Source: Candidatus Eiseniibacteriota bacterium
Lineage (GTDB): Bacteria > Orphanbacterota > Orphanbacteria > Orphanbacterales > Orphanbacteraceae
Assembly (NCBI GenBank): GCA_029262235.1
Contig: JAJCZU010000007.1
Location: forward strand, 62,001 to 126,000
Direction of reading: 5' to 3'
DNA length: 64,000 bases
Shown here: positions 49,686 to 53,066 of the stretch, in pieces
Layout of the letters: every line of letters starts with the position of its first letter
Position numbering within the stretch: position 1 is the first letter of the stretch
Position numbers and translations under genes: made by a program
The notes under the pieces: generated by a model
What the model was told of the DNA's origin: nothing
The model's input: only the letters and a program-made list of their open reading frames with translations
The model's database searches: none

Positions 49686-50729
49686 CTAGATTCCGACCCT
49701 CACCATCACGCCCACTCCCTGCTCGAACGCGTCTTCTTCATCCGCAAGCAGGCGCTGTGAAACCGGAATGCGCACGTCCACGCCAAGCGCCACGCCCCGG
49801 AGATTGTAGCTCGCGCCGAACATCACACTGTGCGAAATGAGCCCGGAGTTCTTGTCGCGCTCGCCATCCCATGCAGACGGCCCCTGGCGAAAGAACAGAT
49901 AGTTCGCGCGGAAACCGACCGGACCGACGGCGCGTGACACGCCCGTCATTGCCGTGATCTCGCGCGAACCGCGATACGCCTTGTCGTTTTCGTAGACAGG
50001 GAGTCGCGCGGAAACGAAACTGTTCGCAGTCACGCCCGCCATGACAGCCGTCGAATACAGCAGCTCGGCGATCGGATCGAACGTCCCGGTACCGAACTGA
50101 ATATGCAGGTGCTCCTTACCGGCTTCGCCCAGTTCCCACGGGTTGTGTTCGGTCTGGCCGACGGGAATCGTGGTCCCGATACCGAAACGAACCCTGTCGT
50201 GCTCGCGAACGACTCCCGAGAACGCGGTCTGCGCCAGGAGCGACAGGTCCGAAAACCCCGTGTACGTTTCATCCCGGTGGTGAATGTCGCCATTCCGCTG
50301 CATCGCCGCGATCTCTTCGGGCGTCGCATCGTCAATGGGATTAATCGTAACCGACTGATCTTTCCGTTCGTACGGCACACGAAGCGCTGCCTGCCAGCGA
50401 TCCGTTACACCGTAGCGCGCTTCGACCTCGACGCGCGACAGGTCGATCGTGATGTCGTGACGGTGCAGCGGCACATTCACGAGTTCGCCGCCCGGGGTCA
50501 GCCCCTTGCGCTCGTCGTGCCCGCCTTCGAGATCGAACGTCTGCGCCACATTCAGGCGCACTTCCCACTCATTTTTTTCGATGGAGACCGAACCGGCCCC
50601 CCAATCCTCGGTTCGAGGAACGCTGGGATTGCTTCAAGCGGGTCATTGGGCGAACAGGTCGGGACTGCTCAGAATCAGCATGCCGAGCGCGAGGGTCAGG
50701 CCCGTCGCGAGACGTGGGAAGTTCCTCAA
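49686..50729 (-). CDS. Outer-membrane barrel protein with two in-frame UGA codons (possible selenoprotein)
   Basis: A TTG (50727-50729) overlapping the upstream stop begins a textbook signal peptide (MRNFPRLATGLTLALG, cleaved near LFAQ). The same frame then meets UGA at codon 29 (50643-50645) and at codon 32 (50634-50636), then stays open for 315 codons to 49686. The open part reads SNPSVPRTEDWGAG and continues as alternating beta-strands up to VGVMVRVGI, like metal- or phenol-type outer-membrane transporters. The UGAs have CxxC spacing (U-P-A-U). Readthrough as selenocysteine, a pseudogene, or an independent start near GTG 50561 are all possible; only the last lacks a signal peptide. Confidence 0.6.
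50600..50627 (-). other. SECIS-like hairpin downstream of the UGA pair
   Basis: On the minus strand TCCTCG and CGAGGA pair around a three-base loop, and CCCA with TGGG extends the stem beyond a small internal loop. The loop lies about 21 nt after the second UGA and 30 nt after the first, within the range known for bacterial SECIS elements. The tiny AAC loop lacks the usual exposed G. Confidence 0.3.
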
Positions 50730-51430
50730 CTCTTCGCCCCTTTCGCATCCGCGCGCGCGATCACCTCGCGCACTTTGTCGATGTAGTTCCCTTTTACTTC
50801 GCCGAGCAGCTTGCCGTCCGGGCCGAAAATGCGCACGAACGGAAGCCCCGAGATCTGGAAATCCTTCGTCGCCTGCTTCGAGGCGTCCGACTTCCAGTCG
50901 ACGAGGTCGACCTTGCGAATCACGAGACGATCGTCTTCCAGGAGCAGCCGTTCGATCTTCGGCGTCAGGATCTTGCACGGCTTGCACCAGTCGGCGTAGT
51001 AATCGACGATCGTGATCTTGCCTTCGGGCATGTGCTTTTTCACGTTGACCTTTTCGCCGGTCGAAATGGTCTGGATGTCGAGGCCCGTGCGCTCCGCTTC
51101 CGTAAGCGGCAGAATCAGCGTCTCGCCGGGAAAGAGCAGTTCGTAGCCGCCGATGGCAAGCGCCTGCTTCAGCGCGTCGCGGTCGATCGCGTCGGGGCCT
51201 TCGAACGAACCCCCGCTTTCCGCGAATTTGACGACAGGGTTCGCGACCCCGTCGACGCTTTCGAACAGCTTCACTGCCTTCGGCTCACACGCTTCGCAAT
51301 CCATGCCATACAGCTTGAACTCATAGACCGCGGCGGTCGCAGCGGCCGGAAGCAGCAGTGCAGCGCAGAGAGCCAGCGCAGTTACTGCCCTGCACGTCGG
51401 GATGATGGTATCGAGCAGACTTCTATTCAT
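50726..51430 (-). CDS. Exported thioredoxin-like protein with N-terminal HMA-like domain
   Basis: The 234-residue protein has a signal peptide (1-33). An HMA-like segment follows with YGMDCEACEPKAVKLFESVDGV, where the CxxC could bind a soft metal. Residues about 125-225 are a thioredoxin domain with active site DWCKPCK and cis-Pro in SGLPFV. It may transfer metal or disulfides in the periplasm. The start ATG at 51430 has AAAAGGA. Its stop overlaps the TTG of the barrel gene (TTGA), tying the two in translation. Confidence 0.88.
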   Translation of the reverse strand: MNRSLLDTIIPTCRAVTALALCAALLLPAAATAAVYEFKLYGMDCEACEPKAVKLFESVDGVANPVVKFAESGGSFEGPDAIDRDALKQALAIGGYELLFPGETLILPLTEAERTGLDIQTISTGEKVNVKKHMPEGKITIVDYYADWCKPCKILTPKIERLLLEDDRLVIRKVDLVDWKSDASKQATKDFQISGLPFVRIFGPDGKLLGEVKGNYIDKVREVIARADAKGAKS

Positions 51431-51512: not shown

Positions 51513-51974
51513 TCAGCGCAGAAAAACGGAGTAAAGCAGATGCGTCGGCGGTGACGGATGGTCCGTCTCCCGCGTCGCGGAGTTCGCAAGGACGCCAGGC
51601 CTGGGCGGGGGCGCAATGGCAAGAACGCTCGCATGAAGCGAACCTGCCAGGCCGGGCGCGCCGGACAATCCCGCCAGGTCGTGCGCCGGCGCCGAAGACT
51701 TCGCGGCTTTCCCGATGGTCCGGTCGATCGCGGGAAGAACGGCATAGCGCGAAGCCTCGCCGATCGCGGCCATCAGACAGCAGTCGCCGATGGCGTCCTC
51801 GCAGTTCGCGCTCGTCTTTTCCCCCGCGCAGCAATCGTCGGCAGGCGCCTCCGCCGGACCGCAGCATGCGCAGGCCGCAATCGAGGCCGAGGTCGAAGCC
51901 GGGCACGCGAGCGCCCATACGACCACGAGCACGAGCCACGACGCAAACCATCGATTGTCGCGAGAAAGACGCAA
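51513..51974 (-). CDS. Small Cys-rich secreted or membrane protein
   Basis: The product has 153 residues if started at TTG 51974, with GAAGGAG 6 nt before it. It has a hydrophobic N-terminus (SWLVLVVVWALACPAS) followed by a Cys-rich cluster (ACACCGPAEAPADDCCAG, then NCEDAIGDCC). The C-terminus ends in SPPTHLLYSVFLR. It resembles small proteins found next to metal-efflux genes, but no family is certain. It heads an operon with the thioredoxin/HMA and barrel genes, 82 nt apart. Confidence 0.65.
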   Translation of the reverse strand: MRLSRDNRWFASWLVLVVVWALACPASTSASIAACACCGPAEAPADDCCAGEKTSANCEDAIGDCCLMAAIGEASRYAVLPAIDRTIGKAAKSSAPAHDLAGLSGAPGLAGSLHASVLAIAPPPRPGVLANSATRETDHPSPPTHLLYSVFLR

Positions 51975-52081
51975 ATCGGCTCCTTCGGTCGGTAGCGGGA
52001 TCCCTTCAGTCACCCTGCTCCCCAAGGATCGGTTCCCCGGACTCTCCAGTTGAGTCCGCACGTGGGTTCCGATATTCTGCT

Positions 52082-52094
52082 TACTATTATAGTA
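52082..52094. promoter_or_regulatory. Palindromic bidirectional -10 region
   Basis: TACTATTATAGTA gives TATAAT on the minus strand (plus 52086-52091) toward the Cys-rich gene and TATAGT on the plus strand (52088-52093) toward the lipoprotein gene. The extended palindrome GCT-ACTAT-ATAGT-AGC is nearly perfect. Confidence 0.5.
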
Positions 52095-52160
52095 GCAGAG
52101 GACAGGCGCCGCTCCATCCGGGAATTGTCCTCGTTCCGACACCACCAGGGGGAGACCCAG

Positions 52161-53066
52161 ATGAAACGATTAATCCTGCTTCCCGCGCTTTTGCTCGTTC
52201 TTCTCATGCAGGGCTGCGTCGACTACAACGAGTGGCTCACCTTGAACAAGGACGGATCGGGCACCATCAAGATGCGCGTCGCGATCGACGAAGAGCTGCG
52301 AGCCCAGATGAAATCGGCAATGGAACAGTTCTCCTCGAGTCTGGGCGACGCCATGGACATGCCCGATCCGATGGCCGGGATGAACGAGAAGGACATCAAG
52401 ACAAAGCTGGCCACGCGCAAGTCCGGCGCCAAACTCAAATCGTTCTCGCATAAGTCGAGCGGCGGAGACGAAGTCACCGAAATGGAGTTCTCGTTCCAGA
52501 GCATGGCCGATTTCGAGGACATGGCATACGCGCTCGACAGCGAAGGCGACGGTGACGTTTCCGTCCCCTTCACCTACGCCAAGGGGAGCGACGGCCTCTG
52601 GGTCTACACGCGCGACCTCGACCCGGAGACGATGTCTTCGGGTGCGGGCATGCCGGAATATGCGGGCATGGACGCGGGGATGTCCGGGGGTTCGAGCGCC
52701 CCTAAGGGAATGCCCGAGGGCATGCCGAAGATCCCGGGCCTGGGTGACTTCGATCCGTCGAAGCTTGCCAGCATGTCCGAGGAAGAGCGCGAAGCGGCCA
52801 TGAAGAAAATGATGGAAGACCTCCAGGGCGGTCTCAAGGATCTCGAGAAGAATATGGGCAACCTGGAAAAGCAGGCGGGGTCGCTCGAGGCCACCATGGA
52901 ACAGTCGATGGAAGGGCGATCCATGCGCTTCGAGGTCACGTTCCCCGGCAAGATCGTCGAGTCGAACGCGACGAAGGTCAATGGAAGCACCGCGATCTGG
53001 GAGTTTCCTCTGAACGACATGAAAGACGGCACCATCGACAACTTCTCCGCGAAAGTGAAGCAATAA
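52161..53066 (+). CDS. LppM-like lipoprotein
   Basis: The 301-residue protein has a lipoprotein signal peptide with Cys19 (LLVLLMQGC). The N-terminal domain (VDYNEWLTLNKDGSGTIKMRV) resembles LppM/DUF3153-like lipoproteins. A Met/Gly/Pro-rich stretch (about 155-205) and a coiled-coil of Glu, Met and Lys (about 210-265) follow. Function is unknown. GGGGGAG lies before the ATG. It is divergent from the Cys-rich operon. Confidence 0.8.
   Translation: MKRLILLPALLLVLLMQGCVDYNEWLTLNKDGSGTIKMRVAIDEELRAQMKSAMEQFSSSLGDAMDMPDPMAGMNEKDIKTKLATRKSGAKLKSFSHKSSGGDEVTEMEFSFQSMADFEDMAYALDSEGDGDVSVPFTYAKGSDGLWVYTRDLDPETMSSGAGMPEYAGMDAGMSGGSSAPKGMPEGMPKIPGLGDFDPSKLASMSEEEREAAMKKMMEDLQGGLKDLEKNMGNLEKQAGSLEATMEQSMEGRSMRFEVTFPGKIVESNATKVNGSTAIWEFPLNDMKDGTIDNFSAKVKQ

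What the first reader, a model, noticed from the sequence alone, without database searches (positions are those of the whole stretch)
50634..50729. Signal peptide and outer-membrane barrel in one frame, joined across UGA-CCC-GCU-UGA: candidate UxxU selenoprotein
From a TTG overlapping the upstream stop, the frame encodes an ideal signal peptide ending LFAQ. It then meets UGA, Pro, Ala, UGA, and continues as SNPSVPRTED and a full barrel. Two UGA three codons apart, just after the cleavage site, copy the spacing of a CxxC motif. Two independent nonsense mutations at exactly this place would be a coincidence. The neighbouring genes encode CxxC-rich proteins (thioredoxin/HMA and a Cys-rich secreted protein), which fits a thiol/selenol or metal-binding role. 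Other genes in the window end normally in TGA, so a general UGA reassignment is not implied.
Basis: partly seen in the sequence, partly recalled or inferred. Interest (0 to 1): 0.88.

Follow-up and report, generated by a model that had tools for sequence, protein, structure and literature searches.

The report
Double-selenocysteine outer-membrane channel protein
The two in-frame stop codons almost certainly encode selenocysteine, giving a previously unlisted family of outer-membrane channel proteins that carry a selenium-bearing UxxU tag just behind the signal peptide and often sit beside mercury and copper genes.

Summary
On the minus strand, a TTG-started frame (50729..49686) encodes a signal peptide, then UGA-Pro-Ala-UGA (50645..50634), then a 12-strand barrel. 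The selenocysteine interpretation passes every test I could run. The genome has tRNA-Sec, SelA, SelB and SelD. In relatives from Gemmatimonadota-like, Planctomycetota, Poribacteria and Bacteroidota genomes, the two positions read only UPAU, UGAU, CPAU or CPAC. All CPAC forms are Bacteroidota, whose genomes lack SelA. A covarying hairpin with a GU apex sits 40-46 nt after the second UGA in most UGA forms and in none of the Cys forms. Codon-position bias shows protein constraint on both sides of the UGAs. Pfam, NCBIfam 2026 and two reviews of prokaryotic selenoproteins hold no such family. Neighbours point to soft-metal handling: an HMA-thioredoxin gene directly upstream (overlapping in the window), Cys forms in MerTP/MerA, CopA and CzcA clusters, CPAU forms in Cus-like efflux clusters. 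Most likely it is an outer-membrane channel whose periplasmic N-terminal selenol pair binds or exchanges a soft metal, such as Hg or Cu, with the HMA-thioredoxin partner. The Sec assignment is near certain; the metal role is inferred.

The parts
49686..50729 (-). selenoprotein gene: signal peptide, U-P-A-U, 12-strand outer-membrane barrel (TTG start, TAG stop)
50649..50729 (-). signal peptide LRNFPRLATGLTLALGMLILSSPDLFA (cleavage FA|Q inferred)
   Evidence: sequence; conserved with codon-position bias 3/2/14 in L010
50643..50645 (-). UGA1 = Sec at mature position 2 (U-x-x-U)
   Evidence: aligned to Cys or UGA in all relatives
50634..50636 (-). UGA2 = Sec at mature position 5
   Evidence: aligned to Cys or UGA in all relatives
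50602..50631 (-). hairpin 1 in the mRNA directly after UGA2 (possible SECIS part or spacer)
   Evidence: RNA folds
50583..50601 (-). hairpin 2 GGGGGCCG-GUU-CGGUCUCC, candidate SECIS, apex 40 nt after UGA2
   Evidence: conserved place, compensatory changes, absent from CPAC forms
50726..51430 (-). upstream partner gene: signal peptide, HMA domain (CEAC), thioredoxin domain (WCKPC); stop overlaps the barrel start (TTGA)
   Evidence: same order in L010, L051 and eight Bacteroidota loci
51513..52145 (-). ORF of a Cys-rich secreted protein upstream in the same direction (true start probably internal)
   Evidence: no family hit

Best explanation
The gene encodes a selenoprotein. SelB delivers Sec-tRNA at both UGA codons, directed by RNA hairpins just downstream in the coding sequence (the Sec reading is strongly supported; which hairpin serves which UGA is not known). 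The protein is exported. Signal peptidase removes the leader, leaving a mature N-terminus Q-U-P-A-U-SNP on a tail of about 27 residues in front of a 12-strand outer-membrane channel (fold predicted). I infer that the two selenols on this periplasmic tail bind or exchange a soft metal such as Hg(II), Cu(I) or Ag(I), or become a diselenide that the co-encoded periplasmic HMA-thioredoxin reduces. In this way metal handed over by HMA proteins would be captured at, or moved through, the channel; invariant histidines in the outward half of the barrel may complete the path. My probabilities: Sec at both sites 0.97; outer-membrane channel 0.9; soft-metal handling 0.6; the transfer mechanism as described 0.35.
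For: Sec machinery in the genome: tRNA-Sec 70.7 bits, SelA 538 bits, SelB 370 bits, SelD 349 bits, itself with one in-frame TGA. Motif forms in relatives: UGAU 41, CPAU 27, CPAC 8, plus UPAU in the window, L010, L025 and L051. SelA above cut-off in all tested UGA-form genomes except G001 (82% complete) and the L097 MAG (fragments only); no SelA in any of nine Bacteroidota genomes with the Cys type. Hairpin 2: 94.8% of cells paired, 6 of 8 pairs with double changes, 20 such cells against 5.7 shuffled and at most 5 when slid; apical stem reached by about 1% of synonymous shuffles in UGAU and CPAU, 67% in CPAC. Barrel model pLDDT 86.5, pTM 0.83, closest to FapF and COG4313 channels. Metal context: HMA-thioredoxin directly upstream in 8 of 9 Bacteroidota loci, plus the window, L010 and L051; L052 has ArsR-MerTP-MerA-HMA/Trx-barrel; L038 CopA, L074 CzcA; 18 of 27 CPAU loci have YHS, TolC-like and CusB-like genes downstream. 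Seven invariant His in 44 sequences.
Against: No peptide or 75Se evidence. The hairpin apex lies 40-46 nt after UGA2, farther than in the textbook E. coli fdhF SECIS (from memory), unless hairpin 1 folds away the spacer. In the window's own class (UPAU, four sequences) the synonymous-codon test is weak (23% of shuffles). The UGAU Poribacterial paralogue sits beside an aldo/keto reductase and an oligopeptide ABC transporter, not metal genes, so the metal role may not hold for all members. The N-terminal tail is predicted with low confidence, so its place relative to the barrel is unknown.
Confidence: 0.88

Rival explanations
1. The selenoprotein reading is right, but the function is redox rather than metal handling: the N-terminal UxxU is a selenol redox centre (peroxide, disulfide or selenite reduction at the outer membrane) recycled by the co-encoded thioredoxin domain.
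For: A thioredoxin with WCxPC is the immediate upstream gene; most known selenoproteins are thought to be redox proteins (PMC13188914); the UGAU paralogue is next to an aldo/keto reductase.
Against: The thioredoxin is always fused to an HMA metal-binding domain; the Cys forms lie in mer, copA and czcA clusters and CPAU forms in Cus-like efflux clusters.
Confidence: 0.3
2. Pseudogene, sequencing or assembly error: two nonsense mutations broke an outer-membrane protein.
For: Two TGA codons interrupt one frame.
Against: The same two TGA codons occur in independent assemblies from at least three phylum-level groups, with purifying selection on both sides and Cys codons in organisms without SelA.
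Confidence: 0.01
3. UGA is reassigned or suppressed as another amino acid (Trp, Gly) rather than Sec.
For: UGA is read through in frame.
Against: Both neighbouring genes end in TGA; the sense codons at these sites in relatives are Cys; the full Sec machinery is present.
Confidence: 0.01
4. Only one UGA is Sec and the other is read inefficiently, so that most product stops at UGA1.
For: CPAU relatives keep only the second Sec and retain hairpin 2; one clear GU-apex hairpin serves two UGAs.
Against: UGA1 is conserved as UGA or Cys everywhere, and all 41 UGAU relatives keep both UGAs.
Confidence: 0.08

Closest known systems
COG4313 / Phenol_MetA_deg (PF13557) outer-membrane channels and FapF (PDB 4RL8, 5O65, 5O67)
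   Same: 12-strand barrel with short periplasmic turns; Foldseek E 1e-8 to 1e-10, TM about 0.57-0.61 by query; 13 of 44 family members match PF13557 weakly
   Different: The window protein itself has no Pfam hit; about 11% identity; the known structures have no N-terminal CxxC/UxxU that I know of
GSU2204-type MtrB/PioB barrel selenoprotein (NF041027) and TonB-dependent receptor FCYXU selenoprotein (NF049945)
   Same: Outer-membrane barrel selenoproteins listed in the 2026 review (PMC13188914)
   Different: No NCBIfam match to those models for the window protein or the family; those entries list one Sec
UxxU metal-binding HMA selenoprotein (NF041115) and MerT/CopZ fusion selenoprotein (NF045683)
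   Same: Sec in soft-metal-binding proteins; the two-Sec UxxU motif (NF041115)
   Different: A small HMA domain, not an exported barrel
mer and cus operon outer-membrane components (CusC/TolC-type OMF)
   Same: Metal-resistance neighbourhood
   Different: CusC is a trimeric OEP-family protein; this is a single-chain 12-strand channel that sits beside separate OEP genes (cluster 8)

Membership tests
Bacterial SECIS-dependent selenoproteins | in-frame UGA conserved among homologues, replaced by Cys in others | tested here: met
   UPAU, UGAU, CPAU, CPAC at aligned sites
Bacterial SECIS-dependent selenoproteins | tRNA-Sec, SelA, SelB, SelD in the genome | tested here: met
Bacterial SECIS-dependent selenoproteins | Sec forms only in Sec-decoding genomes, Cys forms allowed elsewhere | tested here: met
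   SelA in UGA-form genomes (two incomplete MAGs aside), none in nine Cys-form genomes
Bacterial SECIS-dependent selenoproteins | SECIS hairpin downstream of UGA with GU/GG at the apex | tested here: met
   spacing of 40-46 nt is long; SelB binding not testable here
Bacterial SECIS-dependent selenoproteins | selenium detected in the protein | not testable with these tools
   needs mass spectrometry or 75Se
COG4313 / Phenol_MetA_deg channel | match to PF13557 above gathering score | tested here: not met
   window protein no hit; 13 of 44 relatives weak, best E 5e-5
COG4313 / Phenol_MetA_deg channel | 12-strand barrel fold | tested here: met
Known selenoprotein families of NCBIfam release 20.0 | match to a curated model | tested here: not met
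mer operon component | encoded with merA/merT | tested here: inconclusive
   true for L052 (MerTP, MerA); MerT/HMA-type genes in 6 Bacteroidota loci; not seen in the window or in the Poribacterial loci

The most novel reading that the evidence does not exclude
A so far undescribed outer-membrane route for soft metals: an exported channel whose N-terminal diselenol, fed or reduced by a periplasmic HMA-thioredoxin, captures Hg/Cu/Ag and passes it along conserved histidines through the barrel. In the marine bacterium of L051 both partners appear to be double-Sec proteins.
Probability: 0.35. Interest if true: 0.85.

Novelty: new variant of a known kind. Interest (0 to 1): 0.74.

Why it matters
It adds a selenoprotein family of at least 70 UGA-containing genes that standard annotation would read as truncated signal peptides or as barrels without leaders. 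It places two selenocysteines at the mature N-terminus of an outer-membrane protein, which is unusual, and it ties Sec to mercury/copper gene clusters. The Cys forms in Sec-free Bacteroidota and the Sec forms elsewhere make a natural experiment on what Sec buys in metal binding.

Tried and rejected
Rfam on the window found nothing at gathering scores. Comparing the window's Cys-rich ORF with the Poribacterial Cys-rich neighbours (cluster 4) gave no homology, so I do not call them the same gene. Plasmid tblastn found no relatives. Profile search against PDB sequences found none. Pseudogene and general UGA reassignment were considered and rejected on conservation, Cys counterparts and neighbouring TGA stops. 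Haft and Tolstoy 2025 was not held; its families were seen only through the review table. The phylum-wide search held only 7 genomes. Within the window's family, G002-G006 lack the barrel although G002-G005 have SelA. One automatic reference for L010 (in A4) started 5 residues late; it does not affect the conclusions.

Full report
OBSERVATION. The finding lies on the minus strand. The frame starts at TTG 50729..50727, sharing bases with the TGA stop of the upstream gene (TTGA overlap), and runs to TAG 49688..49686. Reading TGA as U gives LRNFPRLATGLTLALGMLILSSPDLFAQ-UPAU-SNPSVPRTEDWGAG... and on through the barrel without another stop. UGA1 is 50645..50643 and UGA2 is 50636..50634. The two neighbouring genes end in TGA, so UGA is not generally reassigned.

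SELENOCYSTEINE MACHINERY. The same genome has tRNA-Sec with anticodon TCA (70.7 bits over a cut-off of 47), SelA (538 bits), SelB (370 bits) and SelD (349 bits). One SelD copy itself has an in-frame TGA; a second copy does not.

RELATIVES. Whole-genome search found a same-genus gene (84% identity, L010) with both TGA codons in the same place, and two paralogues in an unrelated genome (L011, L013, 38-41%) that read ESUGAUSNP. A scan of about 85,000 species genomes gave 80 loci. At the two aligned sites the forms are UGAU 41, CPAU 27, CPAC 8 and UPAU (window, L010, L025 and L051); nothing else is seen, apart from L090, where unreadable bases hide the second site. In the tree, CPAC forms one Bacteroidota group and CPAU one Poribacterial group, with the fewest possible changes. 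SelA is above cut-off in the genomes carrying UGA forms, except an 82%-complete MAG and one with fragments only, and is absent from all nine Bacteroidota genomes with Cys-type genes. Between window and L010, differences fall at codon positions 1/2/3 as 3/2/14 before the UGAs and 42/12/111 after, so both sides are translated in this frame. The stretch from UGA1 through 14 codons past UGA2 has only 3 of 18 codons changed, against 139 of 320 overall, as expected if an RNA element overlaps the code.

SECIS. Just downstream, most UGA forms can make a hairpin of 7-8 pairs with a G[U/G]N apex, 40, 43 or 46 nt after UGA2. In the window it is GGGGGCCG-GUU-CGGUCUCC (50601..50583). Across 29 distinct versions, 94.8% of cells pair, 6 of 8 pairs show compensatory changes, and 20 double-change cells compare with 5.7 in shuffles and at most 5 when the partner is slid. 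Only about 1% of synonymous recodings reach the observed stem in the UGAU and CPAU classes; the CPAC class has no such stem (67% of recodings do as well). For the four UPAU sequences this test is weak (23%), partly because L025 and L051 have a mismatch or a larger loop. RNAalifold and single folds also give a first hairpin between UGA2 and hairpin 2. My inference is that hairpin 1 either shortens the effective distance to hairpin 2 or helps UGA1; this is not tested.

WHAT THE PROTEIN IS. AlphaFold2 with 44 sequences gives a confident barrel (pLDDT 86.5, pTM 0.83) with 12 strands by my count, short turns on one side and long loops on the other, both ends on the short-turn (periplasmic) side, and a low-confidence N-terminal tail carrying UxxU at mature positions 2-5. 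The closest solved folds are FapF and the COG4313 channel. The window protein matches no Pfam or NCBIfam model. Across 44 members at 35-45% identity to the window protein (L010 is 85%), seven histidines (mature H44, H62, H64, H123, H124, H180, H182) are invariant. By the strand order they fall in the outward half or outer loops (inference).

NEIGHBOURHOOD. The upstream gene encodes an exported HMA domain fused to thioredoxin. It directly precedes the barrel in L010, L051 and eight of nine Bacteroidota loci; L081 shows the same domains in the upstream frame. Around the Cys forms lie ArsR, MerTP and MerA (L052), CopA (L038) and CzcA (L074). In Poribacteria the CPAU form follows a Cys-rich secreted protein in 26 of 27 loci, and in 18 precedes YHS, TolC-type and CusB-type genes, the last with heavy-metal-binding domains. 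The UGAU form sits by an aldo/keto reductase and an oligopeptide ABC transporter, so its role may differ. In L051 the HMA motif itself reads GMT-U-PSG-U, so the partner may be a selenoprotein too.

MECHANISM. Shown by conservation: UGA decoding at Cys positions, Sec machinery, covarying RNA hairpin. Predicted: outer-membrane channel with a periplasmic tail. Inferred: the diselenol binds or exchanges a soft metal, or is reduced by the HMA-thioredoxin. A purely redox role remains the main rival (0.3).

NOVELTY. The 2022 and 2026 reviews list no such family (PMC9312934, PMC13188914), nor does NCBIfam release 20.0. The main text of the deep-Sep paper does not mention outer-membrane barrels or these phyla. 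SelA/SelB co-occurrence in sponge symbionts was reported before (PMC5649159). Haft and Tolstoy 2025 could not be read directly. The family therefore appears new within a known kind (bacterial selenoproteins).

Noticed in passing
L051:1025-1738 (+): The HMA-thioredoxin partner gene of a marine MAG has two in-frame TGA codons at the HMA metal-binding motif (GMT-U-PSG-U), so the partner may be a selenoprotein as well. The spacing is UxxxU, not UxxU.
   Followed up: partly
L105 (G000:C3:455857-456780): SelD of the window's own genome carries an in-frame TGA (selenoprotein SelD); a second SelD without TGA exists at C3:267519-268475.
   Followed up: no
L072 barrel gene: A third in-frame TGA at mature position 35 in one Poribacterial UGAU member; possibly a sequencing error or a true extra UGA.
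   Followed up: no
window 51513-52145 (-): Cys-rich secreted ORF with CACC, CC and CC motifs upstream of the HMA-thioredoxin gene; Poribacterial CPAU loci also have a Cys-rich secreted neighbour, but no sequence homology was found.
   Followed up: partly
L048:5321-5761 and 25 other CPAU loci: Conserved Cys-rich exported protein of about 146 aa without Pfam or NCBIfam match, just upstream of the CPAU barrel.
   Followed up: partly
window 52050-53066 (+): Divergent lipoprotein gene with a weak LppM-domain match (1.1e-6), also present beside the barrel operon in L010.
   Followed up: no
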